Assembly (NCBI GenBank): GCA_017546665.1
Contig: JAFYSE010000011.1
Location: 1 to 45,413, forward strand
DNA length: 45,413 nucleotides
Origin: Clostridia bacterium
GTDB taxonomy: Bacteria; Bacillota; Clostridia; Oscillospirales; Acutalibacteraceae
Direction of reading: 5' to 3'
The position numbers were made by a program, and so were the translations under genes. Below, in pieces: positions 27,803 to 45,413 of this stretch (position 1 is its first letter; each line of letters begins with the position of its first letter). The notes beneath the pieces were generated by a model. That model was not told the DNA's origin and searched no databases. It was given only the letters and a program-made list of their open reading frames with translations.

Positions 27803-27813
27803 TTGATTTTGTG

Positions 27814-27834: not shown

Positions 27835-27850
27835 TTATTTTACAAAAAAA

Positions 27851-27875
27851 GACCTTGCATTTCGTATGCAAGGTC
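27851..27875 (-). terminator. Probable original guaA terminator
   Basis: A 10-bp stem (GACCTTGCAT / ATGCAAGGTC) with a five-base loop is followed by TTTTTTT on the minus strand. It lies about 155 bases past the left att site, on the host side, so before insertion it would have ended the guaA transcript. Confidence 0.75.
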
Positions 27876-28029
27876 ATATTTTTTGAGTTTAAGTTTTTGA
27901 TTATTATAACAAGCTAAGATTTGCCCACCGAAAATATTGTCGCGTTGCTCGCTTGGAGCGCGTTGCACCGCTCTGTTTTTTCGCATAATAATCAACTTCG
28001 CTTCATCTGCCACAGGCAGCGCTCGTTGA
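27876..28029 (-). other. Structured, GC-richer intergenic stretch (former guaA 3' region)
   Basis: No credible gene is seen here. The stretch is clearly richer in GC than its neighbours. It carries a 10-bp inverted repeat AATAATCAAC / GTTGATTATT enclosing a smaller CTGCC-TGT-GGCAG type hairpin, and a repeated GCAACGCG / GCGCGTTGC motif. It lies between the left att site and the terminator at 27851. It could be a dispersed extragenic repeat or a structured 3' untranslated region. Its identity is unknown. Confidence 0.5.
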
Positions 28030-28042
28030 TTATTCCCACTCA
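28030..28042. repeat. Left attachment site copy (13-bp core)
   Basis: TTATTCCCACTCA here is identical to the guaA 3' end at 44481-44493, and the flanks differ. Read on the minus strand it is TGAGTGGGAATAA, the codons for Glu-Trp-Glu-stop with one preceding base. A chance 13-base match at the expected edge of an integrase-bearing element is unlikely. Confidence 0.8.
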
Positions 28043-28332
28043 CTTAGTTTTGATATTTAACTTGTGAAAAGGCACGTAAAATAAAGGTTTCTGAGGGGTC
28101 AAAACTGAAGAATTTAAGATTTTTGCCCATTTGCCGTATCAATACCAGTATCACGGAACAAAAACACTAACCCCGGCGGATTCACACCCACCTGAAACAC
28201 TCTTTATTTACAATTGCAAATGAATTGTAGCACATAAAAAACGAGATGTCAATACTTTAAAGCGATGAAGTTAATTATTATCCCTATAACACGTATTGAC
28301 ATGTCGATTATAAACCCTTAAATCAATCATGA
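28043..28332. other. Left-end non-coding region of the element
   Basis: No gene is seen in these 290 bases between the left att core and the stop of the nuclease-NACHT gene. It holds one copy of the CAGTATCACG repeat at 28146-28155. A small AATCATGATT palindrome lies near 28327, beside the stop. No clear hairpin plus T-tract terminator for the defence operon was found. Confidence 0.5.
28146..28155. repeat. Candidate integrase arm-type site, left end
   Basis: CAGTATCACG lies about 100 bases inside the left att core. The same ten bases occur in the same orientation at 44291-44300, near the right end. Confidence 0.5.
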
Positions 28333-31300
28333 TTAATCAACAACAAGTTTTGATCTTACAATATAATCATTAAGGTTTTCTATACTATTATTCAACAAGC
28401 AACAAAACTGATAATCTGTTCGAGCAATATGCTTTGATTCGTAATTTGGCATAGGCAACAACGCTCTATAGCCATCAACATAAACCATTTCAAAGGTTTT
28501 AATTAAAGACTCACCGTAATATAAATAATAATTTATACTTCGAGCATTTCTATCAGGATAATTTGTTGCCCATTCTTCTTCAAATGGTCTTTCTTCTTCA
28601 TATGAATCCCATTTAATTGATATTTTACGATCAGGCATATAAGTCATTTTGCGATTATCAGGATCGATGTCCCAATGTGATGTTTTACTATTACATATTG
28701 TATGAACCAACTGGCTGTTTTGATTTGTGTAAGTATGCAATTCAGTTAAACAATCCGAGCATGGATAAACCATTGCTTCACAAAGTTTTAATAACTGTTC
28801 AATACAATGTCTTCCCGAAGTATCTTCTCCAGTAAGTGAAAAGGCTTTAATGATATTAACAAGTCCCATTCTTCCTGCATGCTTCATAATATAATCAGCC
28901 GCCTTCGTCCGAGTTTGAGTATCAGAAATTAATATTGCAGTTATTATTGGAAAGCACTTGCTTGTTTTGGAAAAATGAGAATCAGGATAATAGTTAGCAT
29001 CCAACGTTTGATACAACATTTTAAGTTCCTTATCTTGAGATTGCTCAAATTTTATAAGCGTTTCCCAAATGGAATAAGAAGAATAGTTTATACCACTTTT
29101 CTGACAATTATAGTACTGCGAAATGTTATCAATGGTTAAATCATCTCTAACTACTGTACTATGCCCAGACTCCCAACCCATCAATCTGTTTGGCTCTTCA
29201 GAATCAACCGAACTCAAATCGTTAATAATATCCTCTAAATACGGACAACATTTTTCAACAACATACTTAAAGTGTGCATCGTAACTACCACTATCAAGCG
29301 TTTCTTTTGCCAACTTCAAAATGGAATTTGTACGTCTTATATTAATTTCCATTTCTTCTTCAGATAACCAACAATTTTCATATGCCGTCAATAAACACTT
29401 AGGTAAATGCAAATCGAGCATATCCTCTTTTCTGAACACAGGTCTAAAAATACTGTTATTTACTGCATTTTCAAAAAGAGCATCCGCTTTGAATATATCA
29501 AAATGCGACATCATGGTTGCATATTGATATCCAAGATCGGAGTTATAATCGTAATACGAAACATCTTTGCTTGCAACTAAGTATTCTGAAGAAATTAGAC
29601 TTGGGTTTGCAATTGTTTTAAACAGAGGCAAATTTCTTGACATAATAACATACAAAACTTGGAATGTGTTGACAACACTACGATATTTTTTTAATTCACC
29701 AATAAATTGTCTTATTTCAGTATCGGTAAAATCCAATGTAGAAAGCATTTCGCCAATAAAACAAGTATTGTAATATCTGAACCAATTTTTGTATATCAAA
29801 TTATACTTGTTGATTTCTGTTAAAATAGCGGTCAGTATTTCATTTTTATTGTCTGAATAAAATTCGTGAACAATGCGCCTTAAAGAAATACCGAGTTTAA
29901 AATCATGATGATATGGCACTTCTTTGCCGTCAAGCAGCATCAGTGTATAGCTGTTTAGCTCTATATTGTTTCTCCAAGTTTCATAATGATTAATGTTTGC
30001 TTTTTTTGCTCGAGCTTGAATACTTGCTTCTTGAATAATTTCCTTTGTCAAAATGCCGTACAGCACAACCGTATTATTTTCATATGATTCGGACTTATTT
30101 TGAGCAATTCTATCACACAATGTCTGAGCTAACGGAGACAACTTGCCATCGTTTTTTATTATGTATTTTAGATTGTCTTGCCTTAACAAAATGTAGCTCA
30201 AAACTTCCAAATGATTTATAGATAACTTTCCTATCGCACTTAACAACCAATCATAAAAATTTTCAATTGCCAATGCAAAGAACGCTATTACAAAATTCGA
30301 ATTAGTTTCGCTGGAAGGGTAATAATCTAAATCTGTATTGCGTACAGTATGTTCCATAGTACAGATAAAATTATAAACATCCGAAATAGACACATTATCT
30401 ACCATACACTTACAATACAGATATGAATAAATATCTTTGTTTTTAGCTTTTAATAGCTGTTCTTCAGAAAAATCGTAGAAATCCTCTAATGTTTCTCGAA
30501 TATCCACCCCATTTGTTTTGTGATATTCTTTAACAAAATCATAATAATTGTCTGTAGTTAAATATCCTTTTATATGCAATGGGTCTATGCGTATAAAATC
30601 CCTAAAATCTTCAATTTGTTTTGTGCACAAATATCTTCGCAACTCTGACGAATAAGCATATGATTCCGATGATGGCACCAAAAATTTTTCCGTGGAAAGC
30701 CAAGGAGAATTCTCTCCTCTCATGTATACATCACCCAAATATGCTTCAAAAAAACGAAGCGTGAGCACCTTTTCAAGATTAGCACTTAATGTATTTTCTT
30801 TTAGTTCTTGAATCAAAAAAATATGTAAAATGAAATCCCTATTTGATAACAACTTCAATTCTCGTAAAATAGAAGGGTTATCGTAAAATTCATTTTTAAT
30901 CGCGACGTATAGGTAAAATTCAAAATATCGCTTGTGCTTATATGAGTATCTAAGCAGTAAATCCTGAGAAGGAGATACATCAAAGAAAAGTTCGCAGACT
31001 ACATCGATAATGTGGTCAACCTCTAAATAACTGCAATTCGGGAATTGATTTCTTATTATTTTTTGTAGCTCTGATCTACTAATAGATATAATTCCAGAAC
31101 GTTGCATCTTTTTGGAAACAGATGCCAATATAGATGTTATGGATAAAACCTTAGGCTCCGGTAAGTTAATTAATACTAATTTGCTGTGTTTTTCTATGCG
31201 CTGCTCTACATTTAATTTAATTAAATCGACTTTCGTTGTTTTATCATCTATTTGAGTAATATTTTCACTCAATAGCACCGCAGAAAAAATATCGGTAATA

Positions 31301-32439
31301 TCATCTAAAAATGCCGGATTGGTTGATTTTATATTTATGAGCTTTTTGCTCTTTTCGGCATTGTTTAAGCTCCTAAAATATAACTCTACATCGGCTGTTT
31401 TTAGATCGTCTATTGTGTAAACCTTGGTTTCTAAATCACGCAAAATCATTGTAAGATTGGGCGTATTAAGACGAGAAGAAAGAATAAAAGAATTATGATT
31501 ATTGGTGGTGTGATGCAAAATGAATGACATTACACTGTGAAAATCAATTGTCGAAACTTCATCAACACCATCCAAGAAAATCATATATGGATTTTGATTG
31601 TTTGCTATACTAATACCAAAATCATTCAATCTATCTCTTAACAATGACTCCAAATTGCCTTTTATACAATCTCTTAGTCTTATTAAAACAGGTATTTGGA
31701 TATCACAGGGTGCCGGTGTTTGTTTAAAACTTGACTTATATTTGGCTTCTGCTTTAAGATATAGTTTTTTTAATAATTCACTTTTTCCTGTACCTGCTGC
31801 ACCTGTAACAATAGATAATTGATTGGATAATATTTCGTCTTGGAGCAAGGAAAACCTTGTGCCGTTTACAGATAAATCAATGAATTGCAAAGAGGTCAAA
31901 AAGGTACGTTCGTCATACGTTATTGCGCTGTTTAACAAACCGTTTGTGTCCTGAGAAGAAAAGAAAGCTCTATATAAATCATAGTTACTATCTTCGTTTA
32001 AGGCACTTTCAAAATTTGTTTTTAAAAACCAAATAATTTTTATGCCTTTATCTCGTACCAAACGTGCTATTTTGATTCGATTGGATTTAGTTGTTGATGC
32101 AAGTTCTTCTTCTGTGACATTGGGCTTGATATCCAGATTTGTGTATACAATTATGGTATTTATATGCGGATATGTAGCTACAGCCTTTTTTAAAGAGTCA
32201 TACACTTCTTTATAAAGAGCATCGCCATTTCCACTTGTTGAATATTTACATTGAAACCCATAATATTTCCCATCAAACGAGATAGGTTCAGTTTCCAGTC
32301 CGGTTTGATTGTAGTTTGCGGAAAAAGCATGACTGCTTACTTTGTACTGACGGAGAAATATGTGGCGACACATAGTTTCAAATGCATCGCGCGGATTTGA
32401 GTTCTTTATTTCAAATTGGTTCCAGCTAATATTATTCAT
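28333..32439 (-). CDS. PD-(D/E)XK nuclease-NACHT-like STAND NTPase (defence protein)
   Basis: This 1368-residue protein combines an N-terminal restriction-endonuclease-like region with a STAND-type NTPase and a very large C-terminal part. The nuclease signature is GLETEPISFDGKYYGFQCKYS (acidic residues Glu49/Glu51, then Gln63-Cys-Lys65). The NTPase has Walker A GAAGTGKS (213-220) and a NACHT-like Walker B MIFLDGVDE (286-294), then SSR at 321-323. Residues from about 450 on are helical with no recognised repeat family and probably sense a phage or cellular trigger, as in Avs and bacterial NACHT proteins. A strong AAGGAG site precedes the ATG. It lies 59 bases after the helicase gene with no terminator between, so it is probably in the Shango-like operon. 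Which Avs/bNACHT family it belongs to is undetermined. Confidence 0.8.
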   Translation of the reverse strand: MNNISWNQFEIKNSNPRDAFETMCRHIFLRQYKVSSHAFSANYNQTGLETEPISFDGKYYGFQCKYSTSGNGDALYKEVYDSLKKAVATYPHINTIIVYTNLDIKPNVTEEELASTTKSNRIKIARLVRDKGIKIIWFLKTNFESALNEDSNYDLYRAFFSSQDTNGLLNSAITYDERTFLTSLQFIDLSVNGTRFSLLQDEILSNQLSIVTGAAGTGKSELLKKLYLKAEAKYKSSFKQTPAPCDIQIPVLIRLRDCIKGNLESLLRDRLNDFGISIANNQNPYMIFLDGVDEVSTIDFHSVMSFILHHTTNNHNSFILSSRLNTPNLTMILRDLETKVYTIDDLKTADVELYFRSLNNAEKSKKLINIKSTNPAFLDDITDIFSAVLLSENITQIDDKTTKVDLIKLNVEQRIEKHSKLVLINLPEPKVLSITSILASVSKKMQRSGIISISRSELQKIIRNQFPNCSYLEVDHIIDVVCELFFDVSPSQDLLLRYSYKHKRYFEFYLYVAIKNEFYDNPSILRELKLLSNRDFILHIFLIQELKENTLSANLEKVLTLRFFEAYLGDVYMRGENSPWLSTEKFLVPSSESYAYSSELRRYLCTKQIEDFRDFIRIDPLHIKGYLTTDNYYDFVKEYHKTNGVDIRETLEDFYDFSEEQLLKAKNKDIYSYLYCKCMVDNVSISDVYNFICTMEHTVRNTDLDYYPSSETNSNFVIAFFALAIENFYDWLLSAIGKLSINHLEVLSYILLRQDNLKYIIKNDGKLSPLAQTLCDRIAQNKSESYENNTVVLYGILTKEIIQEASIQARAKKANINHYETWRNNIELNSYTLMLLDGKEVPYHHDFKLGISLRRIVHEFYSDNKNEILTAILTEINKYNLIYKNWFRYYNTCFIGEMLSTLDFTDTEIRQFIGELKKYRSVVNTFQVLYVIMSRNLPLFKTIANPSLISSEYLVASKDVSYYDYNSDLGYQYATMMSHFDIFKADALFENAVNNSIFRPVFRKEDMLDLHLPKCLLTAYENCWLSEEEMEINIRRTNSILKLAKETLDSGSYDAHFKYVVEKCCPYLEDIINDLSSVDSEEPNRLMGWESGHSTVVRDDLTIDNISQYYNCQKSGINYSSYSIWETLIKFEQSQDKELKMLYQTLDANYYPDSHFSKTSKCFPIITAILISDTQTRTKAADYIMKHAGRMGLVNIIKAFSLTGEDTSGRHCIEQLLKLCEAMVYPCSDCLTELHTYTNQNSQLVHTICNSKTSHWDIDPDNRKMTYMPDRKISIKWDSYEEERPFEEEWATNYPDRNARSINYYLYYGESLIKTFEMVYVDGYRALLPMPNYESKHIARTDYQFCCLLNNSIENLNDYIVRSKLVVD

Positions 32440-32498
32440 TGCTTATTTCTCCTTGTTTAGTATTTGAGCTTCATTAACTTGAATTTGTGCTAATTAGT

Positions 32499-34694
32499 TT
32501 ATAATTTCCACTCGTCATCAAAATCAACAAGTTTATTTAATATCTTATTTGCAGATACAACATTAACCTGATTATATAAATATGCTTCTCTTAGAAGTTC
32601 ATCAGGCACCATATAATCATATTTATCAATTCTCGGCGCTTGATTTTCATTGAGCACCATATTTGGGTTATCTTGATCAATCACAAGTTCTTGTAATTTT
32701 TTAGTAAGGTCATCAATTTCTAATCCACTGGTAAAACTGAAATAATAAATTGAATTAGAAATTGACCTAATATCAAGATGTTCCTTTAAACCGTAGGCAA
32801 AAAGACTCACAATTGTTCTGATTTCCTTTGTGCCTATCCAAGGACAAACATAATAAGATCTATCTGCATATTGAATAATATCACTATCTAATATACCTGA
32901 TGTTCTTGCTAATTCTCTGGCATTTCCTAAAACTTCAATTGCATTTTTTTGAAGGTATGGATATATAACATCTTCTTGTAATACTCTTTTGATTCGCTGT
33001 ATAACTTTCGAATCAATATCTCCACCTTCGCCATTCCATAATGGAATCTTGCTGCTTTTTGTCTGATTAACATGGATCGTTTTTCTTTCTTCATCAATGG
33101 ATATTACTTTCCATGCTCTTCCCGCAAGAATAAACACCTCATCAATTGCAGGGCATTTATTTAATGTGCCGACTTCGCCGTTACTGCTCAAAACCTTATA
33201 TGCTTCCTCTTCTTTAAAAACAGCGTAAAATGTAAAATGATTACAAATCTTTTCGCCTTTTAAGCCAACTATTATTCCACCATTGTCCAATCGTTCAATA
33301 TATTCTTTCTCTAACATATATTTCAACAAAACACGATACTCGTCAGCAGAAATAATATTTTTAAATGCTGGAAGCAATAACACCTTCTGAGCAAGTTCAG
33401 ACGGCATTAGTTCACCATAAGACATCAAAATACTTAATGTTTGATGAGCCAATAAGCTAAATGGCTTTTTCTTCTGTTCAAAAGGCTCAACCCAACGCTC
33501 TTCTAAATATAACTGAATAATAGCAATTGAGCGCAATAAATCCCATGGAAGTGCATCTAATGGATTTTTATGGGAAGGTTTAAACAGATTAAGAAACATC
33601 ATTTGAGATTTTCCAGTTCTTCTACCTGAACGTCCTAATCTTTGCACAAAGCTGGAACAAGTGTACGGGGCACCTATTTGAATTGTAGAATCCAAATCAC
33701 CGATATCAATACCTAACTCAAGTGTTAATGTGGCAGCAGCAACAGTCGGCCCATCATTATCACGAAGAGCCTCTTCCGCTTCTCTTCGTAATGATGCAGA
33801 AATACTTCCATGATGAACATAGAAAACATCATTTTCATTACGTCGAGCAGCTTCTTTTTTCATTTCATCTATTGTTTTTTCTGCATTACCTCTGCTATTT
33901 GTAAAAATCAAACACTTTTTATTGTGGCAATTTTCATATAAAAAAGAATTATATTCATCAAGCACATTATTTGCTTCTAATTCATTTTCAGGAATAACAA
34001 ATGATTCTGCACAAAGTGAAATTGTTCTTTTATGAGATTGAATACCAACAGATATAGCTGTTCTATCGCTACCAGCACAAAGGAATCTCATTGCCGGTTC
34101 ATAGTCATTTAATGTTGCGGACAATCCTACTCTTCGAGGATAACAATTTGTAAGTTTTTCTAACTTATCAATCAAACACAAAACTTGCAGGCCTCTATCT
34201 TCACCCATCAAAGCATGTATCTCATCAATAACAATAAATCGCAAATCAGAAAACAACCTGCTTGCATCACCTGGGTGTCTCATAATTAAGGCTTCTAATG
34301 ATTCAGGAGTAATCTGCAACACTCCTTTTGCAGTCTTTAATGCCTTTTTTTTATGCGATTGCGAAATATCACCATGCCACGACCAAACAGGAATATCAAC
34401 ATCATCCAACAAATCATTTAATCTCTCAAACTGGTCATTAATAAGAGCTTTTAAAGGTCCAATATACATAATACCGATAGAATCAGACGGATCATTATCT
34501 AATAAAGTTAATATCGGAAAGAATGCAGCTTCAGTTTTTCCTGAAGCTGTACCGGAGGCAATTATCACATGCTTGTCTGTATCTAAAATTGCATCACAAG
34601 CCTCAACCTGAACCTCTCTTAAATCAGTCCATTTTTTACGATATATGTATTCCTGAATAAAACCGGCATAACGTTCAAAGGCACTTCTACTCAT
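32499..34694 (-). CDS. sngC: Shango-like SngC: DEAD/DEAH superfamily 2 helicase
   Basis: This 731-residue Lhr-like superfamily 2 helicase is the third gene of a Shango-type anti-phage system. Motif I is SGTASGKTEA (Lys53), the Q-like region is LREVQVEA, motif Ib is TPESLEAL, motif II is DEIH (157-160), motif III is SAT (192-194) and motif VI is QRLGRSGRR. The C-terminal 250 residues form the accessory domain typical of Lhr-related helicases. Its ATG overlaps the stop of the ATPase gene by 4 bases (ATGA), so their translation is coupled and a fixed stoichiometry is likely. Assignment to Shango rests on the gene trio, not on the helicase alone. Confidence 0.82.
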   Translation of the reverse strand: MSRSAFERYAGFIQEYIYRKKWTDLREVQVEACDAILDTDKHVIIASGTASGKTEAAFFPILTLLDNDPSDSIGIMYIGPLKALINDQFERLNDLLDDVDIPVWSWHGDISQSHKKKALKTAKGVLQITPESLEALIMRHPGDASRLFSDLRFIVIDEIHALMGEDRGLQVLCLIDKLEKLTNCYPRRVGLSATLNDYEPAMRFLCAGSDRTAISVGIQSHKRTISLCAESFVIPENELEANNVLDEYNSFLYENCHNKKCLIFTNSRGNAEKTIDEMKKEAARRNENDVFYVHHGSISASLRREAEEALRDNDGPTVAAATLTLELGIDIGDLDSTIQIGAPYTCSSFVQRLGRSGRRTGKSQMMFLNLFKPSHKNPLDALPWDLLRSIAIIQLYLEERWVEPFEQKKKPFSLLAHQTLSILMSYGELMPSELAQKVLLLPAFKNIISADEYRVLLKYMLEKEYIERLDNGGIIVGLKGEKICNHFTFYAVFKEEEAYKVLSSNGEVGTLNKCPAIDEVFILAGRAWKVISIDEERKTIHVNQTKSSKIPLWNGEGGDIDSKVIQRIKRVLQEDVIYPYLQKNAIEVLGNARELARTSGILDSDIIQYADRSYYVCPWIGTKEIRTIVSLFAYGLKEHLDIRSISNSIYYFSFTSGLEIDDLTKKLQELVIDQDNPNMVLNENQAPRIDKYDYMVPDELLREAYLYNQVNVVSANKILNKLVDFDDEWKL

Positions 34695-36025
34695 ATATCA
34701 AACTCCGCAAACAAATTATCACTTTCTTCATCAATTTGTTCAGGGTCTTTTTCTGCACTCTGCACAGAAAATCCCTGCTTATTAATTAATTCATCAAATG
34801 TAGTTCCGGGATTTTGGTGAAGAATATTTAATAATCCGAGAAAGTCTCTTGTAACTTCTCGAGGTGTAAGTAATTGGTCTGCACCTAATCTTCCAAGAAC
34901 CATATTTAAAAATACAGTAAGTTCTTTTTGTCCTAAATTGCATTCATATGAATAATGTGAACTATGCAATTCACAAAGACGCTCAAGTAGTAAATATATT
35001 TCTTCAGCTGTCAGCTGTTCAAGCTTAATAACAGGACTTGTAAAATCAACAAAACCTTTAATCGCAAAACGGTTGTCCGCGAGACGTGAACGCAAAGCTT
35101 CATAGCTAAACAAACCTCTGCGTTCATCATAAATAAATTGGGGAGTACCACTCATAAATACACCAATATATTCTGCTTTGCCTTGCATTGTATCATTAAA
35201 GATTGTAAGAACCTTTTCGTAGTTACTGTCTCTTGCTTGCTTGTGATTTATCTTATAAAGATTTACTCCTTCATCAATAAACACGAGTAAGCCTTTATAT
35301 CCAGCTTTTTTCACAAAAAGAGCAAAAAGCTTTAAGAACTCATACCAATTTTGATCATCAATAATACTATCAACAGGAAGCTCTCTTTTTGCTTCGGTTT
35401 TGTTTGCATACTCGCCTCGCAACCATCTTAAAGCAGATGTTTTTAAGGCATCATCTCCGTTCTTCATACCTTTCCAATAAGAATCTATTACATTTGAAAA
35501 AGCAAAACCATATGCCATTTCTGAAAGTTCAGACAAAACTTCTGCTATTTTATCGCTTACTGCTTTTATCAATGCAGGATCATTGACTTGTAAATTGTCT
35601 TCCTTTGCTATTGTAGTTTGCATAGAAGCAATCCATTTTTGCAAAATTGATTCCAAAGCACTTCCTTCCGGACGTGTTCTTGTTGAAAGATGCTGTATCA
35701 ACTCTCTGTATGTAGCTAAACCTTGTCCGCCTGCACCTGTTAATCTTCTTTCAGGAGACAAATCGGCATCCATAACAACAAAGGAACGCTCCATTGCATT
35801 ATTACGGATAGTTTGCAATAAAAAGCTCTTACCACTACCATATTGACCACAAACAAATCTAAAAGCAGCGCCACCATCTTCAATAGTTGCTAAATCCTGT
35901 AAAAAGGCATTTACTTCACCATGTCTACCAACGGCAATATGCCTTAAACCAATTCTTGGTACAACACCTGCTGTTAATGAATTTATCAAAGCCGCAGATT
36001 CGCGACGATTTATTGTTACAGCCAT
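34691..36025 (-). CDS. sngB: Shango-like SngB: P-loop ATPase (DUF2791/BrxC-like)
   Basis: This 444-residue ATP-binding protein is of the DUF2791 type, distantly related to BREX P-loop proteins. Walker A is GQYGSGKS (60-67); Walker B is LLVFIDEG (Asp251-Glu252). Pieces such as FLQDLATIEDGGAAFRFVCG and VFMSGTPQFIYDERRG are typical of the group. The ribosome site AGGAGG lies in the end of the upstream gene, and the ATG begins 3 bases after its stop. In Shango the ATPase works with a TerB-domain protein and a helicase; the mechanism is not established. BREX is excluded because no PglX methylase or PglZ is present. Confidence 0.85.
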   Translation of the reverse strand: MAVTINRRESAALINSLTAGVVPRIGLRHIAVGRHGEVNAFLQDLATIEDGGAAFRFVCGQYGSGKSFLLQTIRNNAMERSFVVMDADLSPERRLTGAGGQGLATYRELIQHLSTRTRPEGSALESILQKWIASMQTTIAKEDNLQVNDPALIKAVSDKIAEVLSELSEMAYGFAFSNVIDSYWKGMKNGDDALKTSALRWLRGEYANKTEAKRELPVDSIIDDQNWYEFLKLFALFVKKAGYKGLLVFIDEGVNLYKINHKQARDSNYEKVLTIFNDTMQGKAEYIGVFMSGTPQFIYDERRGLFSYEALRSRLADNRFAIKGFVDFTSPVIKLEQLTAEEIYLLLERLCELHSSHYSYECNLGQKELTVFLNMVLGRLGADQLLTPREVTRDFLGLLNILHQNPGTTFDELINKQGFSVQSAEKDPEQIDEESDNLFAEFDI

Positions 36026-36028
36026 AAA

Positions 36029-38452
36029 TTAATCCTCCTGTTTCATTGCATCTTTTAATTCATTTTCATATTGTTCTAATACGCAAATTTCATCACTAAA
36101 TGTATCTATCAAAATGTCACCAATAATTTGTGATGAGATATCGTTAATTTCGTCAATTAGCATTTCCGGCATTGATAATTCAGCATTAGCAATCTCCTCT
36201 AATTGCGAACTGATATTCACCCTGTTTAAAATAACGCATATAATTGTCTGCTGTATCGGAGACAAAGTTTCAATTAATTGTTTCAACTCATCTGAAAGAT
36301 TATCTACAGTAAACATTGAACTGTTATCAGTCTCTTTTATTTCATCACCACACTCGAATTCATCAAGGTGATTATATATAAATTCAAACTCATCCCTATA
36401 ATCATCTTCTAAAAGGAGATGGTTTTCCTCTACTACCAATATAGCACATGCTAAATATTTTAAAGAAATCTCGTTTACTTTATCGACAGACGGTTGGACT
36501 GATGAATCATAATTAATCTCCCATGAATTCGAGTGTAATTCATTAATTAAAGAACGACAATATTGTGGTATTAAACCAAAGATTGTCTTTACAACATCAA
36601 TATCCGTCAACAATTCTTTTTGTTCTACAGAGTCATCAGATACCTCAAGAGCATCCCTTACCGCATCGGATTGATTTCTTAACTCATTAATGTTATTGAA
36701 ATCAAGATTTACTTCAGCTTTTTTAGGAACTTCTGTGGTTGTTTTCTTTGGCGAATACTCCTTAATCAAAAATGCTTTTACCATTTTAGCGGTTTCATCG
36801 TCTATCTCAACGCCTCTCAGACGACCTCTTGAACCGTATAACTCTCGCAAAACATTTTCGGCATAGCGAACCAATTCGTTGATATAACTACGTAATTTTT
36901 GGCTGCTTGTGTAACCTTTTACAGACACATTGATTCTTTTATTTGCGTTTATACAGTTTGCGCTTTGAAAAGCATAGTAGCTTTGTTGTTTCGTACGCTT
37001 TGGACCGTAAGTTTCAAGAATACCTTTACCCTTATTTTTTATCAACATGGCATCTGCTAATGCCACTACTCTTGGGATAGCTTCATTCATTAATAATTGA
37101 TGACCTTCTTTATAAAATTTGCTGTTTACTAATGAATAGTCACACAAAGCGTCAATTAATGCAAATGAGAGTTTCAAAGGCTTTTCAGTGCTATGAGCAT
37201 CAATCAAAATATCTCTTATAGCAGGTTGATATGGTAAAGAAACATCATGACAATCTGGAATGCGATATTCTAAATTATGCAATTGTGCAAAATCAAATAG
37301 CCAGTTAAGTAAATAATGGTCAAGTTTAGGATGTTCAGCTCTATAGGTTGTCCACAACGCAAGAAGTTGATTATAACCATCTTCAGGATTTTTCCACCCA
37401 AAACCACTTAACAACTCATATATGTGTACAAATATATATGATAAATCAGTTTTTAAGTACACGGATTGTCTGACTTGAGTTCTCCAGTAAAAATACCAAT
37501 TTTTCTGTTGTCTATTCATACTGTCGTATGACGGCCAGTATTGCATGAAAGGAACAAAAGGTGCTTTATCACCGGTTTTGTTCTCCAGTTTCGCCATATC
37601 CTTGGTAAAATTAGAACCATATCTGTAATCATCATCAAAATCAAAGGTTAATCTGTCATCTGAAATACTTGTTTTGATTCTTATTGCTCCTACCGAAGTA
37701 TAAATATTTTTTGTTTGCTGAGCATTTGCATCTATTGCAGGTATAGCCTGAGATTTTTCTTCTGACCCAGAAACAAACACATCTGTGAAGGGAGAAGAAT
37801 TACTATTATTTTGATTGTTGATTGTTTTTTCGGAACTACTTTTTACAGATTGTTTTACTTTTTCAACTTTATTAACAATTACATCTTTATTAATTTTAGT
37901 TTTAGCATCTTCTAAAGATGAGCTTAACGACTCCTTATAACCGTTAATTTCGTCAACTAACTTTTTGGTATATGTTGATGCTTTATTACTATTGTTTTGT
38001 TTGTTATACTTAATTGGTCTACCTACTTGGTCTGTAAATTTTCCGGATAAAATAAGAATCAAATCTATAACATAACCGAAGCCAAAACACCCCATAGTGA
38101 AAAGATATACCAGTCCTGAAGTTTTCTTACCTGCATAAAATCTATGCAAACCTAAATGCCAAAAGAAAAAACACAAAAGGAATAATACACCCCAAGATTT
38201 ATCTGATGAAATATCATCACGTTCACTTTGTTTTACTTTGATGAATTTATCAAAAGCTATAGCAGGAACAAGAAAGAAATTGCTGAAAATAATATAACCC
38301 AACAATAATATTGTTATATCATCGGAAGTTAAATTACCTTCTGTTCCAACTGCACAAGCAAATGTTACAACAAACATACAAAACATCCATATGAAAATTA
38401 ATATTTTAGATGGCAGCTTTAATTTTTTTATGTTTTCTATAATTTTTTTCAT
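36029..38452 (-). CDS. sngA: Shango-like SngA: TerB-domain protein with N-terminal TM2 membrane module
   Basis: This 807-residue protein has two N-terminal hydrophobic segments (about 14-36 and 46-68). A TM2 domain follows (about 86-136), seen in LGLHRFYAGKKTSG and FGFGYVIDLILI. A low-complexity Ser/Asn/Lys linker (about 150-260) leads to a TerB_N-type domain (about 285-400; QYWPSYDSMNRQQKNWYFYW and YIFVHIYELLSG) and TerB_C-like C-terminal helices. The ATG at 38452 with GGAG six bases before is preferred over a TTG at 38464. It starts 22 bases after the XRE regulator. TerB-type domains are linked to membrane-associated stress and phage responses. The TM2 module gives this SngA an explicit membrane anchor. 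Confidence 0.82.
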   Translation of the reverse strand: MKKIIENIKKLKLPSKILIFIWMFCMFVVTFACAVGTEGNLTSDDITILLLGYIIFSNFFLVPAIAFDKFIKVKQSERDDISSDKSWGVLFLLCFFFWHLGLHRFYAGKKTSGLVYLFTMGCFGFGYVIDLILILSGKFTDQVGRPIKYNKQNNSNKASTYTKKLVDEINGYKESLSSSLEDAKTKINKDVIVNKVEKVKQSVKSSSEKTINNQNNSNSSPFTDVFVSGSEEKSQAIPAIDANAQQTKNIYTSVGAIRIKTSISDDRLTFDFDDDYRYGSNFTKDMAKLENKTGDKAPFVPFMQYWPSYDSMNRQQKNWYFYWRTQVRQSVYLKTDLSYIFVHIYELLSGFGWKNPEDGYNQLLALWTTYRAEHPKLDHYLLNWLFDFAQLHNLEYRIPDCHDVSLPYQPAIRDILIDAHSTEKPLKLSFALIDALCDYSLVNSKFYKEGHQLLMNEAIPRVVALADAMLIKNKGKGILETYGPKRTKQQSYYAFQSANCINANKRINVSVKGYTSSQKLRSYINELVRYAENVLRELYGSRGRLRGVEIDDETAKMVKAFLIKEYSPKKTTTEVPKKAEVNLDFNNINELRNQSDAVRDALEVSDDSVEQKELLTDIDVVKTIFGLIPQYCRSLINELHSNSWEINYDSSVQPSVDKVNEISLKYLACAILVVEENHLLLEDDYRDEFEFIYNHLDEFECGDEIKETDNSSMFTVDNLSDELKQLIETLSPIQQTIICVILNRVNISSQLEEIANAELSMPEMLIDEINDISSQIIGDILIDTFSDEICVLEQYENELKDAMKQED

Positions 38453-38474
38453 AATGATCTCCAAAATATAAATA

Positions 38475-38690
38475 TTATTTCCCTATTTCTTCCGGAACAA
38501 ATTCCATAATATCATCCACACCACAGTTTAATGCAGCACAGATTTTACCGAGGGTTTCCACTGTGACGTTTTCGCCCTTGCTCATTTTTGTGATTGTGTA
38601 ATTGCTGATGTCAGCGACCTTTGCAAGGTCTTTTTTCTTCATATCGTGGTCAATTAAGAGCTTCCAGAGTTTTTTGTAACTAACAGCCAT
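38475..38690 (-). CDS. XRE/Cro-type HTH regulator of the defence operon
   Basis: This 71-residue single-domain helix-turn-helix protein starts MAVSYKKLWKLLIDHDMKK. Its recognition region, DLAKVADISNYTITKMSKGENV, is followed by LGKICAALNCGVDDIMEFVP. The ATG at 38690 with AGAGGTG upstream is preferred to the longer frame. It is the first gene of the defence operon, directly before SngA, and its promoter contains a symmetric site. It therefore probably autoregulates and controls the cargo. It has no partner gene that would suggest a toxin-antitoxin pair. Confidence 0.9.
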   Translation of the reverse strand: MAVSYKKLWKLLIDHDMKKKDLAKVADISNYTITKMSKGENVTVETLGKICAALNCGVDDIMEFVPEEIGK

Positions 38691-38719
38691 AAATACACCT
38701 CTTAAATATAATAATCCAC

Positions 38720-38731
38720 TTATAATTATAA
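38720..38731. promoter_or_regulatory. Candidate XRE operator over the -10 box
   Basis: TTATAATTATAA is a perfect 12-bp palindrome covering the -10 box. Its position and two-fold symmetry fit a repressor dimer site for the XRE protein, though AT-rich palindromes also arise by chance. Confidence 0.4.
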
Positions 38732-38753
38732 CAATCTGATTTTGATATTGCAA
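38725..38753 (-). promoter_or_regulatory. Promoter of the XRE-Shango operon
   Basis: On the minus strand TTGCAA (38753-38748), 17 bases, perfect TATAAT (38730-38725), about 35 bases before the XRE start. This is the only promoter found for the whole defence cargo. Confidence 0.82.
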
Positions 38754-38817
38754 CAAAAAATCGAGTTAAAACTACATTTTATGTTAAAATATTAGCAGTA
38801 TAATGTTGTGCACTTTG

Positions 38818-38839
38818 TATATATAACCCCTTATATATA
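38818..38839. repeat. Perfect 9-bp inverted repeat upstream of the defence promoter
   Basis: TATATATAA and TTATATATA flank a CCCC loop. It lies between the TnpV terminator and the defence promoter. It may be an operator, a hairpin, or low-complexity sequence. Confidence 0.4.
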
Positions 38840-38879
38840 ATAATGTCGAAAAACATAAAAAGTAACGCAAAAATTTTAA

Positions 38880-38905
38880 GGAGCAGTAGAAAAATCTACT
38901 GCTCC
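38880..38905 (-). terminator. Terminator after tnpV
   Basis: An 11-bp stem (GGAGCAGTAGA / TCTACTGCTCC) with an AAAA loop is followed on the minus strand by TTAAAATTTTTG. It separates the mobilization module from the cargo operon. Confidence 0.82.
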
Positions 38906-38913
38906 CAGTTTAA

Positions 38914-39264
38914 TTACGTGTTAATCAGTTCGTGATTTACAATTTCTGTTGCTCGGTTATAGACATTGTTCATTGAACGCACCCAGCATATCTGGTCTCT
39001 TGCTTTCAGTTCTTCGTTGATATTTTCATCCTTGCAGATTTCTTTTACAAGCTGATTAAACATCTTTTCTGCCTGTTCATCGACTTCCTGCAAATGCTTC
39101 CAAAGTGTTCCGTCGGCAAGCATTGTTGTAAAGGTAACGGGTCTATGATACATAAGGTAGTCCTTATGTGCAGTGCCCCATCTGCCGAGAGGAGCCTTTG
39201 CTTCTTCGGGTAAATCAAGATTCGGGATTCTATAATCTCCAACTGTTCTATAAGTTATTTCCAT
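38914..39264 (-). CDS. tnpV: TnpV family transposon-encoded protein
   Basis: This 116-residue protein matches TnpV, a small protein of unknown function first noted on Tn4451-type clostridial mobilizable transposons. Family traits are the start MEITYRTVGDYRIPNL, GRWGTAHKDYLMYHRP and the C-terminal VNHELI. No catalytic motif is seen and it is not a transposase. An AAAGGAAG ribosome site precedes the ATG, overlapping the end of the DUF6809 gene. Its presence next to a MOBV relaxase matches the composition of mobilizable clostridial elements. Confidence 0.88.
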   Translation of the reverse strand: MEITYRTVGDYRIPNLDLPEEAKAPLGRWGTAHKDYLMYHRPVTFTTMLADGTLWKHLQEVDEQAEKMFNQLVKEICKDENINEELKARDQICWVRSMNNVYNRATEIVNHELINT

Positions 39265-39279
39265 AAATTTATCTTCCTT

Positions 39280-39546
39280 TCATTTTACAAATACATCGTG
39301 TGTGAATTTTGCACCGAGCCGAAAACCGGAAATAAAACTGTCGGCAATGCTCATGCTCAGAAATTCGTTGTATAAATTTGTGTATTGCTGAAGCAGTTTC
39401 CTTTCTTCTTCGGATAGCTTTTCTCTGAACTCATCTTCGTTTTTAACGAGTGAGTTCAGTTTCTTTTTAAGGGAAGAGCCGAGCTCGGGACTGAGCTCCT
39501 GCGGCTCTATGTTGCCGTAATAAAATTCTTCAATGAAGCTTTTCAT
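39280..39546 (-). CDS. DUF6809-type small protein
   Basis: This 88-residue helical protein starts MKSFIEEFYYGNIEPQELSP and ends with FISGFRLGAKFTHDVF, a pattern I recognise from small proteins beside mobilization genes in Clostridia (DUF6809). It is rich in charged residues and predicted soluble. It starts 6 bases after the relaxase stop, so it is co-transcribed. Function is unknown. Confidence 0.78.
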   Translation of the reverse strand: MKSFIEEFYYGNIEPQELSPELGSSLKKKLNSLVKNEDEFREKLSEEERKLLQQYTNLYNEFLSMSIADSFISGFRLGAKFTHDVFVK

Positions 39547-39552
39547 ACCGAC

Positions 39553-40767
39553 CTACCTTTCTTTTCGTGGATTTGGTTTTCTGTAACGTGCCTGACGGGA
39601 AGCTCTTTCTGTTTCTTTTGCCTTGACTACAAGAGAATCAATCTGTTCATCACCGAAGATTTTACGAAGCAGCTTATAGTTCTGAACTTCTCTGTTGAGC
39701 TTTTCATTCTGTTCAGTTAGAGTGCGATTTTCAGCCAACATTTGCCCTGTATTGACCTTATCAGCCTTACCCCATAACTTTATACTATTAAGCTGTGTCT
39801 GTAGTTCAAAACACTTTCTTACCGCAGTTTTTGCAAGGTCAAGAAGCTTTTTGAAAAGAGGTTCAACAAACTTTGACTTATAAACTTTTGCTGTCATCAG
39901 AGGCGGAGGTTCAGGTAATTTAAACTCATCAGTTTCATAAAAGTCTTCTGTTATCTCACTTATATCTGAATTAAACTGCATCAGAGCTTCTGCCTTTTCG
40001 GTCAGCTCTTCAACCTTAAGATTCAGTTTTTCAGATTCTTTTGTGAGCTTTTCGACTTCTTCAGAACGCATTTTCTTTTCGTAATCATATACCGATAAGT
40101 GTTTTTCGTGAGTGCCTTTCTGCTCCCATTGAACACCGTAACATTCCATAACTTTTGAAAGTGCTTCCTTTTCGGACTCAACCCACAGACTCCATTCGGT
40201 TTCATGTTTTGAGTTTCCGACAAAGCCTTGATTCGCTAATGCTTGTTTTAATGAAACTCTTGTATCAAGTCCTCGTTTGCTTTTTGTTGTGAACGGTACG
40301 AAGTCGATATGCAGATGAGGTGTTGCTTCATCCATATGAAGATGAGCGGAGAAAACTTTTAAGCACGGATTACGCTTTTGAAAATCCTGATAATACTCAT
40401 CAAGTATTCTCTCGGCAAGTTCACCGTCGGGAGTTTTTGAATTCATATTTTCACAGTTACCGACCTGAATTATGATTTCGTGAAAGGACTTTTCCTGTTT
40501 ACCTGAACGGATTTTCTCGTAGTAGTTTTCGATTTTTCTGTCGGCACGTTTTTGTTTTTGGTTGTATCTTTGTAGTGCATCATCGAACAATTCGTGGTAC
40601 ACATCTTTGATTTTTTCATTGCAGTATTCGGTGTTCAGCGGAGTTCTTTCAGGGTCTGTGTTCTTTGCGTTGAACTCTCTGCTGTTATGATTCACCGAGC
40701 CTTTGCCTACACATATACTTATTGTTCGTCTTATAAAATCACTGTCCTTCTTTTTTATAATCTTCAA
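39553..40767 (-). CDS. MOBV family relaxase (Mob/Pre type)
   Basis: This 404-residue relaxase nicks oriT and pilots the single strand during mobilization. The motif I region is VNHNSREFNAKNTDPERTPLN with His27 and Arg30. Motif III is HLHMDEATPHLHIDF, with Asp146, Glu147, His151 and His153. A coiled-coil region (about 225-265) and a second one (about 330-385) follow. It is closest in kind to TnpZ and plasmid Mob proteins. The start is a TTG at 40767 without an ideal ribosome site; no better in-frame start exists upstream of the motif. Inverted repeats just upstream are candidate oriT. Confidence 0.92.
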   Translation of the reverse strand: MKIIKKKDSDFIRRTISICVGKGSVNHNSREFNAKNTDPERTPLNTEYCNEKIKDVYHELFDDALQRYNQKQKRADRKIENYYEKIRSGKQEKSFHEIIIQVGNCENMNSKTPDGELAERILDEYYQDFQKRNPCLKVFSAHLHMDEATPHLHIDFVPFTTKSKRGLDTRVSLKQALANQGFVGNSKHETEWSLWVESEKEALSKVMECYGVQWEQKGTHEKHLSVYDYEKKMRSEEVEKLTKESEKLNLKVEELTEKAEALMQFNSDISEITEDFYETDEFKLPEPPPLMTAKVYKSKFVEPLFKKLLDLAKTAVRKCFELQTQLNSIKLWGKADKVNTGQMLAENRTLTEQNEKLNREVQNYKLLRKIFGDEQIDSLVVKAKETERASRQARYRKPNPRKER

Positions 40768-40783: not shown

Positions 40784-40965
40784 GTTACTCTTGTCAAGAG
40801 TAACGCAAAAGCACTTATGACATACCTCGTACATCATAAGCTGCAATTGCGCTCTCCGAGGGTTTAAAAACTGCATTTCATCGCAGTTTTCTGCGTCAAC
40901 CGTGACGACCGTGACAACCTTTCTGGCAGTGCGTTTTAAGTTGACACGGTTGACGCGGTTGTCAC
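40784..40965. other. Candidate oriT / iteron region
   Basis: Immediately upstream of the relaxase lie a perfect 10-bp inverted repeat with one central base (GTTACTCTTG / CAAGAGTAAC, 40784-40804) and a 7-bp one (CTTATGA / TCATAAG, 40814-40840). Further up come two mirrored modules built from GTCAACCG and GTGACAACC units (40895-40919 and 40940-40965). MOBV elements usually have oriT just upstream of mob, and the repeated modules resemble iterons for the RepA-like ATPase. The exact nick site cannot be read. Confidence 0.6.
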
Positions 40966-42104
40966 GCCTGCAGCTCGAATCTGATTCTTCTGCATGCGTG
41001 TGTGCGTCTGCTTTCATAGAGAATATTGTACTCATTAAGCAGTCGCCCGGCGGTGACATTAAGCTTCATGCCTAACGCATTCGGCGTAATGTCTAACATC
41101 AACAAATCCCTGAGTTCGGAAACAGTTCCGTCCCATACAGGATTTTCAGCTGTAACTTTTTCTGCTATCGCTTCAAGCAACGGGTCAGGTTTTTCTTTCC
41201 AAAGTTCTGTTTCAACTTTTTCAAGCTCCCATATAAGACTATCTTCATTCCTTGTAAGAAAAAGTTTTTGGTCCTGCTGGTCTCTTCCCGAAACTTCAAG
41301 TGTCGCAGTTTTTGATGTTCGTTTTTCTTTTTGCAAAAGGAATGCACCATCTGCTGCACCGAGCAAACCGTTGGTGCCCGAAATCATATCGAACTTATCA
41401 TCGAAATTTTGTTTGCGGGTGTGATGCACAAGAAGCAAACATATTCCGTATCGGTCAGAGAATTTTTTAAGCTGAGCGATAACCTCATAGTCACTTGCAT
41501 AGGAATACTTTTCTGTTGCTGACTCTCTGACTTTTTGCAAGGTATCAATTATGATAAGTCGGGTATCTGGGTTTTCACTTATAAACTTTTCAAGCTGGTC
41601 AAATAGTCCGCCGTTTAAGTTCTTGGCCGAAACGGAAAAATACAAATTGTCTGTTCCGTCAGTTCCGAACATTCGGTAAAGTCTTTTCTGCAGTCTTGAA
41701 TAATCATCTTCAAGAGCAAGATATAAAACTTTACCTTGTCTGACTTCGTTCTCCCAAAGCTCTTTTCCGGTGCTTACATGATAAGCAAGCTGTGCCATAA
41801 GGAAGCTTTTACCCACCTTGGGGGCACCTACGAAAAGGTAGGTGCCGGGGTAAAGTAGTCCGTCAATGATTGCAGGTTTGTTGAGGTAAGCCGTGTCATA
41901 AAGCTCACTCATCGTTACCGTTTTCATATATGACGGGTCTAAGGTTTTGCGAAGTTCTTTTTGCAATCGCATCATTTCTTTGAAATCATACTTGCTTTTT
42001 TCTTCGCTTTCGGGTATACTATCTACAGTTGTTTGATTTGACTGTCCGTCATCTGCGCCAACAGATGAGAGTGGGACGGTCTTTTCTTTTTTTACATCAT
42101 TCAT
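40962..42104 (-). CDS. RepA-like RecA-fold ATPase
   Basis: This 380-residue AAA/RecA-fold ATPase is of the RepA/AAA_25 type. Walker A is GAPKVGKS (93-100) and Walker B is LIIIDTL; LLVHHTRK and SGRDQ motifs follow. The N-terminal 60 residues are low-complexity and the C-terminal 90 contain a winged-helix-like part. Such proteins support replication of plasmids and of mobile elements in their excised form. The ATG at 42104 has AAGGAG and overlaps the MobC-like gene by 8 bases. Its 3' end lies in the repeated GTCAACCG modules. Confidence 0.85.
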   Translation of the reverse strand: MNDVKKEKTVPLSSVGADDGQSNQTTVDSIPESEEKSKYDFKEMMRLQKELRKTLDPSYMKTVTMSELYDTAYLNKPAIIDGLLYPGTYLFVGAPKVGKSFLMAQLAYHVSTGKELWENEVRQGKVLYLALEDDYSRLQKRLYRMFGTDGTDNLYFSVSAKNLNGGLFDQLEKFISENPDTRLIIIDTLQKVRESATEKYSYASDYEVIAQLKKFSDRYGICLLLVHHTRKQNFDDKFDMISGTNGLLGAADGAFLLQKEKRTSKTATLEVSGRDQQDQKLFLTRNEDSLIWELEKVETELWKEKPDPLLEAIAEKVTAENPVWDGTVSELRDLLMLDITPNALGMKLNVTAGRLLNEYNILYESRRTHACRRIRFELQA

Positions 42105-44480: not shown

Positions 44481-44493
44481 TTATTCCCACTCA
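44481..44493. repeat. Right attachment site copy at the guaA 3' end
   Basis: TTATTCCCACTCA covers the stop and last three codons of guaA plus one base and matches 28030-28042 exactly. Integration therefore keeps the GuaA C terminus intact. Confidence 0.82.
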
Positions 44494-45413
44494 ATAGTGC
44501 CGATTGGCTTTGGAGTAAGGTCATAGAGCACACGGTTGATGCCTTCAACCTCGTGTGTGATTCTGTCAGTAATCTTATGAAGCACTGCGTAAGGAATTTC
44601 TTCGATTGTAGCGCTCATAGCGTCCTTTGTGTTAACTGCACGGATGATTGCAGGCCAACCTTCGTAACGGCTTTCGTCCTTAACACCAACGCTCTTAACG
44701 TCAGGCACAGCAATGAAATACTGCCATACTTTTTCAGCAAGACCGCAGTTGTCAAATTCTTCACGAAGAATTGCGTCTGCTTCACGAAGTGCGTGGAGTC
44801 TGTCGCGTGTGATTGCGCCGAGGCAACGAACACCAAGACCAGGACCTGGGAATGGCTGACGATAAACCATAGCGTGTGGAAGACCAAGTGCTTCACCAAC
44901 AACACGAACTTCGTCTTTAAAGAGAAGCTTGATTGGCTCAACAAGCTCAAAATCAAGGTCTTCAGGAAGTCCGCCAACATTGTGGTGAGATTTAACAGCC
45001 TGTTTGCCTTCAGCCTGCTTAATGCTTTCAAGAATATCAGGATAAATTGTACCCTGTGCTAAGTATTCAACGCCTTCAAGCTTTCTTGCTTCGTCTGCGA
45101 AAACATTGATAAATTCTGCACCGATAATCTTTCTCTTGCTTTCAGGGTCAGAAACACCTGCAAGAAGGTCAAGAAAACGGTCAGTAGCATCAACATAAAC
45201 AAGGTTAGCATCAAGCTCTTTGCCGAAAACTTCAATAACATTTTCGCTTTCGTTCTTTCTCATAAGGCCGTGATTTACATGAACGCAAACCAACTGTTTG
45301 CCGATTGCCTTGATAAGAAGAGCAGCAACAACTGATGAGTCAACACCGCCGGAGAGAGCAAGAAGAACTTTTTTGTCGCCAACCTGCTCACGAACAAGCT
45401 TAACCTGCTCGTC
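44481..45413 (-). CDS. guaA: GMP synthase (5' end missing)
   Basis: GMP synthase converts XMP to GMP using glutamine and ATP. Only the ATP pyrophosphatase and C-terminal dimerisation domains are in the window (311 codons including the stop), and the frame is open to the right edge. The pyrophosphatase P-loop SGGVDSSV is at the right edge, followed by VNHGLMRKNE, LAQGTIYPDILES, RQPFPGPGLGVR and the terminal PKPIGTIEWE. The N-terminal amidotransferase domain lies outside. The 3' end is the integration site of the adjacent element, and the coding sequence is not disrupted. Confidence 0.97.
   Translation of the reverse strand, partial: DEQVKLVREQVGDKKVLLALSGGVDSSVVAALLIKAIGKQLVCVHVNHGLMRKNESENVIEVFGKELDANLVYVDATDRFLDLLAGVSDPESKRKIIGAEFINVFADEARKLEGVEYLAQGTIYPDILESIKQAEGKQAVKSHHNVGGLPEDLDFELVEPIKLLFKDEVRVVGEALGLPHAMVYRQPFPGPGLGVRCLGAITRDRLHALREADAILREEFDNCGLAEKVWQYFIAVPDVKSVGVKDESRYEGWPAIIRAVNTKDAMSATIEEIPYAVLHKITDRITHEVEGINRVLYDLTPKPIGTIEWE

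What the first reader, a model, noticed from the sequence alone, without database searches (positions are those of the whole stretch)
28333..38690. Candidate composite defence system: XRE + Shango-like trio + nuclease-NACHT protein in one operon
Five same-strand genes follow one good promoter: XRE regulator, TerB-domain protein, DUF2791 ATPase, Lhr-like helicase and a 1368-residue nuclease-NACHT protein. Gaps are 22, 3, -4 and 59 bases, with no terminator seen between them. Shango is described as a three-gene system (TerB-like protein, ATPase, helicase). A STAND effector as a fourth member would join a DNA- or membrane-sensing module to an abortive nuclease, which would be a new arrangement if conserved.
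Basis: partly seen in the sequence, partly recalled or inferred. Interest (0 to 1): 0.88.

Follow-up and report, generated by a model that had tools for sequence, protein, structure and literature searches.

The report
Shango island with added STAND gene
A mobile DNA element in a gut-type bacterium carries a known three-gene phage-defence system called Shango, and directly behind it a separate single-gene nuclease sensor; relatives suggest that the two are neighbours, not one new composite system.

Summary
In detail: five minus-strand genes with the stated gaps, XRE, SngA, SngB, SngC and a 1368-residue nuclease-NACHT protein. The trio is Shango by PADLOC models (2e-85, 3e-190, 1e-231). The composite reading is not supported. 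In the order of this bacterium SngC occurs in 86 of 394 genomes, the last gene (E at most 1e-10) only in the window. None of 80 named SngB loci matches the last gene; 42 of them hold at least 700 bp behind SngC. The nearest sister operon (90% DNA identity over 5.9 kb) has a hairpin with a T run right after SngC and no such gene. The three nearest relatives of the last gene lie elsewhere, with no Shango beside them. Six further genes, a tyrosine integrase and mobilization genes among them, and 13-bp repeats show an element of about 16.5 kb in the 3' end of guaA. The last gene is an Avs-like STAND protein: Avs4-type nuclease domain and NACHT with a different sensor. Worth keeping: a Shango clade with membrane-anchored SngA, and a C-terminal STAND domain that also exists as stand-alone plasmid and prophage-like proteins.

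The parts
28333..32439 (-). Avs-like STAND gene (1368 aa): N-terminal Avs4-type nuclease domain, NACHT NTPase, C-terminal sensor (last role inferred)
   Evidence: Residues 1-233 match Avs4 models (PADLOC 1.9e-32; NCBIfam 9e-35); NACHT PF05729 28.3 bits against cut-off 26.7; E49, Q63, K65, G213, G216, G218 and K219 invariant in six N-termini
28336..28719 (-). last ~125 residues of the STAND protein: unannotated domain also found as stand-alone small proteins
   Evidence: relatives in a prophage-like region (L134:7674-8087), a viral contig (L272:1686-2180) and 47 plasmid records
32499..34694 (-). SngC, SF2 helicase of Shango
   Evidence: PADLOC SngC 769.6 bits, 1e-231
34691..36025 (-). SngB, BrxC/BrxD-type AAA ATPase of Shango
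   Evidence: PADLOC SngB 630.8 bits against BrxD 175.9; PF10923 1.3e-163
36029..38452 (-). SngA, TerB_N/TerB_C protein with N-terminal TM2 membrane domain
   Evidence: PADLOC SngA 2e-85 over residues 221-801; TM2 1.7e-12 at residues 84-132; hydrophobic segments 11-39, 44-68, 114-137
38475..38690 (-). XRE (HTH_26) regulator, probable autoregulator of the operon (inferred)
   Evidence: PF13443 1e-20; about 60% identical XRE upstream of the trio in L163 and L230
38725..38753 (-). promoter-like site of the operon
   Evidence: TTGCAA-17-TATAAT with TG, 10 of 12
38914..39264 (-). TnpV-family gene of the mobile element
   Evidence: PF14198 1.9e-41; relative upstream of the trio in L152 too
39280..39546 (-). 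DUF6809 gene of the mobile element
   Evidence: PF20648 4.8e-25
39553..40767 (-). Mob_Pre relaxase
   Evidence: PF01076 1.7e-21
40962..42104 (-). AAA_25 ATPase of the mobile element
   Evidence: PF13481 1.3e-30; 55% identical in L154
42097..42558 (-). NikA-like mobilization protein
   Evidence: PF21983 6.3e-11; 47% in L154
42422..43492 (-). tyrosine integrase
   Evidence: PF00589 1.1e-19, PF14659, PF14657; 63% in L154
44481..44493 (+). att repeat (13 bp) at the 3' end of guaA
   Evidence: exact copy of 28030-28042; 0 of 100 shuffles have two matches with one mismatch allowed
28030..28042 (+). att repeat (13 bp) at the far end of the element
   Evidence: in L248 the window's bases 27918-28041 lie at and directly behind the guaA end (80% over 126 bp), an empty site
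44481..45293 (-). 3' part of guaA (GMP synthase), the integration site
   Evidence: PF00958 1.7e-34

Best explanation
An integrative mobilizable element of about 16.5 kb sits in the 3' end of guaA, from 28030 to 44493, and carries two separate anti-phage modules read in the same direction. The first is an XRE-controlled Shango operon of the membrane-anchored SngA kind. The second is an Avs-like STAND nuclease gene joined directly behind SngC, next to the far att site. Shown by sequence: gene identities, element borders, and absence of the fourth gene from the relatives examined. Inferred: the STAND protein binds a phage protein with its C-terminal part, oligomerizes through NACHT, and its PD-(D/E)XK-type nuclease cuts DNA and stops the infection, as described for Avs1-4 (PMC12931631, passages). 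Also inferred: Shango acts on phage DNA with its ATPase and helicase, held at the membrane by SngA; I saw no described mechanism. The two are probably co-transcribed but work without each other.
For: Shango models hit all three genes. The trio without the STAND gene is the rule: 0 of 85 regions of the order match the STAND protein (81 have at least 700 bp held behind SngC), and 0 of 80 named loci (46 hold SngC's 3' end, 42 with at least 700 bp behind it). L152, 90.4% DNA identity from 32560 to 38423, has an RNA hairpin (z -4.25) with a T run after SngC and no STAND match in 857 bp. The three nearest STAND relatives have other neighbours, and two of their genomes (G567, G897) have no SngB match at 1e-30. 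Integrase, NikA, AAA_25, Mob_Pre, 13-bp repeats and empty sites define the element. L154 has a related integrase, NikA and AAA_25 plus the trio, and no STAND match.
Against: The short gap, shared direction and lack of a terminator or good promoter in the 59 bases allow a shared transcript. The STAND family is so rare that few relatives could be checked: matches in 1 of 394, 5 of 391, 6 of 398 and 2 of 250 genomes, each count including the window, most of the others to the N-terminal part only. 34 of the 80 named loci do not hold SngC's 3' end as searched, so they say little. Neither defence nor independence is tested experimentally.
Confidence: 0.82

Rival explanations
1. A true composite system: Shango senses infection and the STAND nuclease is its dedicated fourth, effector component.
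For: Operon-like layout in the window; both parts are cargo of one element.
Against: 0 of 85 Shango regions of the order and 0 of 80 named loci match the fourth gene; the sister operon at 90% DNA identity ends after SngC; the three nearest STAND relatives have no Shango beside them. A STAND protein carries its own sensor and effector (general knowledge; PMC12931631, passages).
Confidence: 0.07
2. The STAND gene is its own transcription unit with a promoter near the 59-base gap, merely adjacent to Shango. (This is a variant of the best explanation, not exclusive of it.)
For: A weak promoter-like site at 32459-32431 (9 of 12); homology to sister operons stops near the 3' end of SngC, at 32560 to 32527.
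Against: The number of promoter-like sites there is no more than chance (1 against 1.7); no terminator-like site separates the genes.
Confidence: 0.3
3. In this order the TerB-ATPase-helicase trio is not mainly a phage defence but a chromosomal or element-maintenance function.
For: SngC is common (86 of 394 genomes); in six regions of one family (f17) ORFs of similar sizes follow, of which only one was identified (DUF3792), so a fixed chromosomal place is suggested, not shown.
Against: Published protection by Shango in P. aeruginosa (PMC10250203, passages); in the window the trio sits on a mobile element.
Confidence: 0.1

Closest known systems
Shango (SngABC)
   Same: All three genes and their order; SngA, SngB and SngC models match
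   Different: SngA has an N-terminal TM2 membrane part. Of 54 other SngA of the order, 1 (L095) has N-terminal membrane segments; of the loci with SngB at least 73% identical, 20 of 20 with an upstream SngA ORF do, the window included
Avs4 / AVAST STAND nucleases
   Same: N-terminal nuclease domain with invariant E49...Q63xK65, P-loop G213xxG216xG218K219, STAND layout
   Different: Only about residues 1-233 match; 119.3 bits against a cut-off of 1500 for Avs4, whereas an Avs4 found here scores 2102.6 bits with the PADLOC model that gives the window protein 109.6
BREX (BrxD, BrxHI)
   Same: SngB and SngC are related to BrxD and BrxHI
   Different: Much better scores for Shango models; BrxD 176.7 bits is below its cut-off of 350; no PglZ or methyltransferase among the eleven element genes scanned
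Integrative mobilizable elements in guaA
   Same: Tyrosine integrase, mobilization genes, guaA target; guaA is a known site of streptococcal IMEs (PMC5357655, passages)
   Different: Different host group; cargo is phage defence

Membership tests
Shango | TerB protein, ATPase and helicase encoded together | tested here: met
   SngA 2e-85, SngB 3e-190, SngC 1e-231, adjacent and in order
Shango | protects against phages | not testable with these tools
   needs plaque assays
   0 of 85 regions of the order and 0 of 80 named loci; the window is the only case
Avs4 | full-length match to the Avs4 model | tested here: not met
   119.3 bits against cut-off 1500, residues 6-233 only
STAND NTPase with nuclease effector (Avs-like) | N-terminal nuclease-type domain, central NACHT, long C-terminal part | tested here: met
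   nuclease activity itself not tested
STAND NTPase with nuclease effector (Avs-like) | C-terminal part senses a phage protein | not testable with these tools
   needs experiments; no structure prediction was accepted either
BREX | PglZ and methyltransferase beside BrxD or helicase | tested here: not met
   none among the eleven element genes scanned with Pfam
Integrative mobilizable element | integrase, mobilization protein or relaxase, att repeats, empty sites in relatives | tested here: met
   transfer itself not tested

The most novel reading that the evidence does not exclude
By being joined to the 3' end of an XRE-controlled, membrane-anchored Shango operon, the STAND nuclease has become functionally coupled to it in this lineage: Shango acts first, and DNA or protein products of its action, or a rise in operon expression when XRE is relieved, set off the nuclease as a second, suicidal line.
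Probability: 0.07. Interest if true: 0.75.

Novelty: new member of a known kind. Interest (0 to 1): 0.3.

Why it matters
It keeps a neighbour on a mobile element from being taken for a new four-gene defence system. It also documents a Shango clade with membrane-anchored SngA found in Clostridia and Methanosarcina records, its carriage on an element in guaA, and a STAND sensor family whose last domain exists alone on plasmids and in a prophage-like region, which could point to what such sensors recognize or are blocked by.

Tried and rejected
Composite system with conserved fourth gene: not supported by the neighbourhood surveys. Avs4 membership: not met. BREX: not met. A first thought that the 1453-1936 aa genes behind SngC in seven loci were PolC: rejected by Pfam. 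tblastn of the whole STAND protein in phage records and a pattern scan of viral contigs found nothing; alignment A3 found nothing in viral contigs and A4 only the last domain. In plasmid records 80 matched: the 30 listed match the N-terminal part, most of them annotated as avs4; the last domain alone matched 47 records. The C-terminal pair A2 found no relative in genome contigs. Solved structures: no match for the STAND alignment, SngA or SngB. Left-flank synteny: in seven same-genus regions around the FAD-dependent gene (26399-27802) only that gene and, in two of them, short distant stretches matched. Literature: searches for Shango with TerB, anti-phage, TM2 or STAND (listings and abstract starts; one search returned off-topic papers) and passages of PMC10250203, PMC10952713 and PMC12278908 showed no STAND gene as a Shango part and no mechanism; this is a limited library.
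Full report
Observation. The start of SngA is taken as the ATG at 38452. The promoter-like site at 38753-38725 is good, but such sites are not more frequent than in shuffles of the region (60 against 53.7). The 59-base gap has no terminator-like site and one weak promoter-like site, no more than chance.

What the genes are. PADLOC models identify the trio as Shango: SngA 2e-85, SngB 3e-190, SngC 1e-231. SngA carries a TM2 domain in front of TerB_N and TerB_C. The last gene has an N-terminal part of about 230 residues related to Avs4 (1.9e-32; 119.3 bits, cut-off 1500), a NACHT domain above Pfam's cut-off, and about 1000 further residues without a Pfam match. An alignment of six N-termini (window, L126 of G897, L037 of G567, and L039, L040 and L127 found by the same searches) has invariant E49, Q63, K65 and the P-loop glycines and lysine. 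The PD-(D/E)XK reading of E49...Q63xK65 is mine, from knowledge of the fold. L039 is a full Avs4 (2102.6 bits; window protein 109.6 bits with the same model); L040 and L127 were not scanned. So the window protein is Avs-like, not Avs4.

Is the fourth gene conserved? In 394 genomes of the same order, SngC (E at most 1e-130) occurs in 86 and the last gene (E at most 1e-10) only in the window. At a looser limit one more genome of the family, G145, has an N-terminal match (residues 3-128, 1.5e-9); it has no SngC and no SngB. I fetched the regions around the SngC copies of the other 85 genomes (L041-L125). blastp of the window proteins against their ORFs of at least 70 aa gave no match of the STAND protein; its four matches were in the four regions without SngC, L037-L040. 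Of the 85 regions, 81 hold at least 700 bp and 70 at least 4200 bp behind SngC. A scan of named genome contigs with a two-sequence SngB alignment gave 80 loci (84 matched, 80 kept). None matches the STAND protein (tblastn, E at most 1e-3); 46 hold the 3' end of SngC on the expected strand, 42 of them with at least 700 bp and 37 with at least 4200 bp behind it. The two sets overlap in part (L154 and L095 are one contig). NACHT was sought in 80 of the 86 Shango genomes: 6 have a match above the cut-off and of these only the window's lies on the SngC contig; 48 have a match at E up to 1e-3, and two of the weak ones, G222 and G100, share a contig with SngC at about 28 kb and 336 kb.

The nearest operons. 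L152 (Oscillospiraceae bacterium RGIG8564) is 90.4% identical in DNA from 32560 to 38423, and its SngB is 98.6% identical. Behind its SngC comes a hairpin with a T run (free-energy z-score -4.25 against shuffles; the simple terminator scan did not list it) and then no match to the STAND protein up to the contig end, 857 bp after the end of the SngC match. Homology to L152, L153 and L168 ends at 32560, 32533 and 32527, close to the 3' end of SngC. Nine genes behind SngC, chosen by me from seven other loci of this clade, were scanned with Pfam: a tRNA synthetase, a thiamine-pyrophosphate oxidoreductase, an ion-channel-like protein, a protein without a match, a cation ATPase on the other strand, an SdpI protein, a SPASM protein, BrxL on the other strand, and a UvrD-PDDEXK helicase on the other strand. 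The last two could be defence genes. None is a STAND protein.

Relatives of the last gene. Matches, window included: 5 of 391 genomes of the class, 6 of 398 of the phylum, 2 of 250 of the family, most of them to the N-terminal part only. The closest full-length one (G897, 32% over residues 5-1367) lies among a relaxase, a T4SS coupling protein, RadC and a large methylase-helicase ORF; the 20 kb fetched give no match of SngA, SngB, SngC or XRE, and the whole genome no SngB at 1e-30. The one in G567 (25%) lies beside SIR2-HerA, with a reverse transcriptase gene between them, and that genome has no SngB. The C-terminal fragment in G536 lies between two pieces that match a type IV restriction model, on a 6.8-kb contig; the genome's SngB-model match is a BrxD in a BREX-type operon on another contig. 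Of the genomes with partial matches, G524, G758, G803, G145, G775 and G823 have no SngB at 1e-30; G914 has one (2.1e-187), on another contig (C20) than its N-terminal STAND match (C33).

The mobile element. Upstream of the operon lie genes for TnpV, DUF6809, a Mob_Pre relaxase, an AAA_25 ATPase, a NikA-like protein and a tyrosine integrase, then the 3' end of guaA. TTATTCCCACTCA occurs exactly twice, at 28030-28042 and at the guaA end, 44481-44493; no shuffle of 100 had two matches with one mismatch allowed. In same-genus genomes, sequence that lies beyond the far repeat in the window lies directly behind guaA: in L248 (80% over 126 bp, window 27918-28041) and L244 (89% over 37 bp), and in L236 a short stretch and two gene pieces from 23931-27884. 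The element therefore spans about 28030-44493, and the STAND gene is its last gene. L154 (uncultured Agathobaculum) carries relatives of the integrase, NikA and AAA_25 (63, 47 and 55%) with the trio and no STAND match. guaA is a known site of streptococcal IMEs (PMC5357655, passages).

How it works, as far as can be said. Shown: gene identity and layout, element borders, absence of the fourth gene from the relatives examined. Known from others: Shango lowers plating of many phages 10-100-fold in P. aeruginosa, not of all tested (PMC10250203, passages); the nuclease effectors of Avs1-4 cleave phage and host DNA after recognition of the large terminase, the portal or another phage protein (PMC12931631, passages). 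Inferred: XRE represses its own operon; SngA holds SngB and SngC at the membrane; the STAND protein works alone. I give 0.82 to two separable modules carried by one element and 0.07 to a coupled composite.

Side findings. Among the 24 loci (window included) whose SngB is at least 73% identical to the window's, 20 have an upstream SngA ORF; all 20 have at least one N-terminal hydrophobic segment and 18 have two or more (L095 and L154 are one locus). L162 and L170 are cut and in L165 and L166 the SngA-like match lies behind SngC. The set includes two Methanosarcina records, L160 and L189. Among 54 other SngA of the order only L095, a member of this set, has N-terminal segments. The segments come from a simple hydropathy rule. 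Among less similar SngB loci, 35 of 113 proteins upstream of SngB (picked by position) have such segments, 33 of them two or more, nearly all cyanobacterial, so a membrane part is not unique to this clade. Seven of 85 regions of the order have, directly behind SngC, a different large gene (1453-1936 aa, all seven related to each other; DUF4011, AAA or MTES_1575 nuclease domains in four of the six scanned); six of the seven are in one family, f17. In PA14 a large multi-domain helicase gene also lies beside Shango (PMC10250203, passages); whether it is related was not tested. None of the 80 named loci matches this family at 1e-15. The last 125 residues of the STAND protein are related to stand-alone small proteins: a 137-aa ORF shortly upstream of terminase and portal genes in G803 (29%), a 164-aa ORF on an IMG/VR contig (29%) and places in 47 plasmid records; no match in phage records with the G803 protein.

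Noticed in passing
28336-28719; L134:7674-8087; L272:1686-2180: The last ~125 residues of the STAND protein are an unannotated domain (no PHROGs match at 0.01) that also exists as stand-alone small proteins: shortly upstream of terminase and portal genes in a prophage-like region, on a viral contig, and in 47 plasmid records (23 Enterobacter, 18 Klebsiella by name; most of the 30 listed are 4.5-5.1 kb).
   Followed up: partly
L066:8207-13234, L067:8217-13256, L101:1842-6983, L104:8227-12633, L106:2616-6977, L109:1124-6934, L119:1948-7029: A family of 1453-1936 aa proteins (DUF4011, SF1-type AAA, MTES_1575 nuclease in some) follows SngC directly in 7 of 85 Shango regions of the order, six of them in one family: a better candidate for a recurrent fourth gene.
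   Followed up: partly
36029-38452; L152-L164, L167-L169, L172, L189, L230: A Shango clade with membrane-anchored SngA, found in Clostridia and Methanosarcina records.
   Followed up: partly
L165:310-6992, L166:247-6929: In two contigs titled as a euryarchaeon and a Streptococcaceae bacterium, with the same identity values to SngB and SngC, the SngA-like match lies behind SngC; one shared element or a binning error.
   Followed up: no
many of L191-L228 (cyanobacteria): Cyanobacterial loci with an SngB relative (about 47-52%) and an upstream protein, mostly of about 430 aa, with two N-terminal hydrophobic segments; in most of them no SngC match in the DNA held: possibly a two-gene relative of Shango.
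   Followed up: no
L065, L075, L076, L082, L096: Two SngC genes in tandem in five regions, all from one family (f20) of the order.
   Followed up: no
L038:1317-6133: A 548-aa C-terminal relative of the STAND protein lies between two pieces that match one type IV restriction enzyme model.
   Followed up: no
43990-44281: Three tandem copies (60-100% alike) of a 98-bp AT-rich repeat between integrase and guaA, possibly an origin or att-arm region of the element.
   Followed up: no
L071:13566-14549: In another Shango region of the order, relatives of XRE (59%), TnpV (35%) and DUF6809 (28%) lie together about 1.2 kb beyond the start of SngA, on the other strand: parts of the same mobile module.
   Followed up: no
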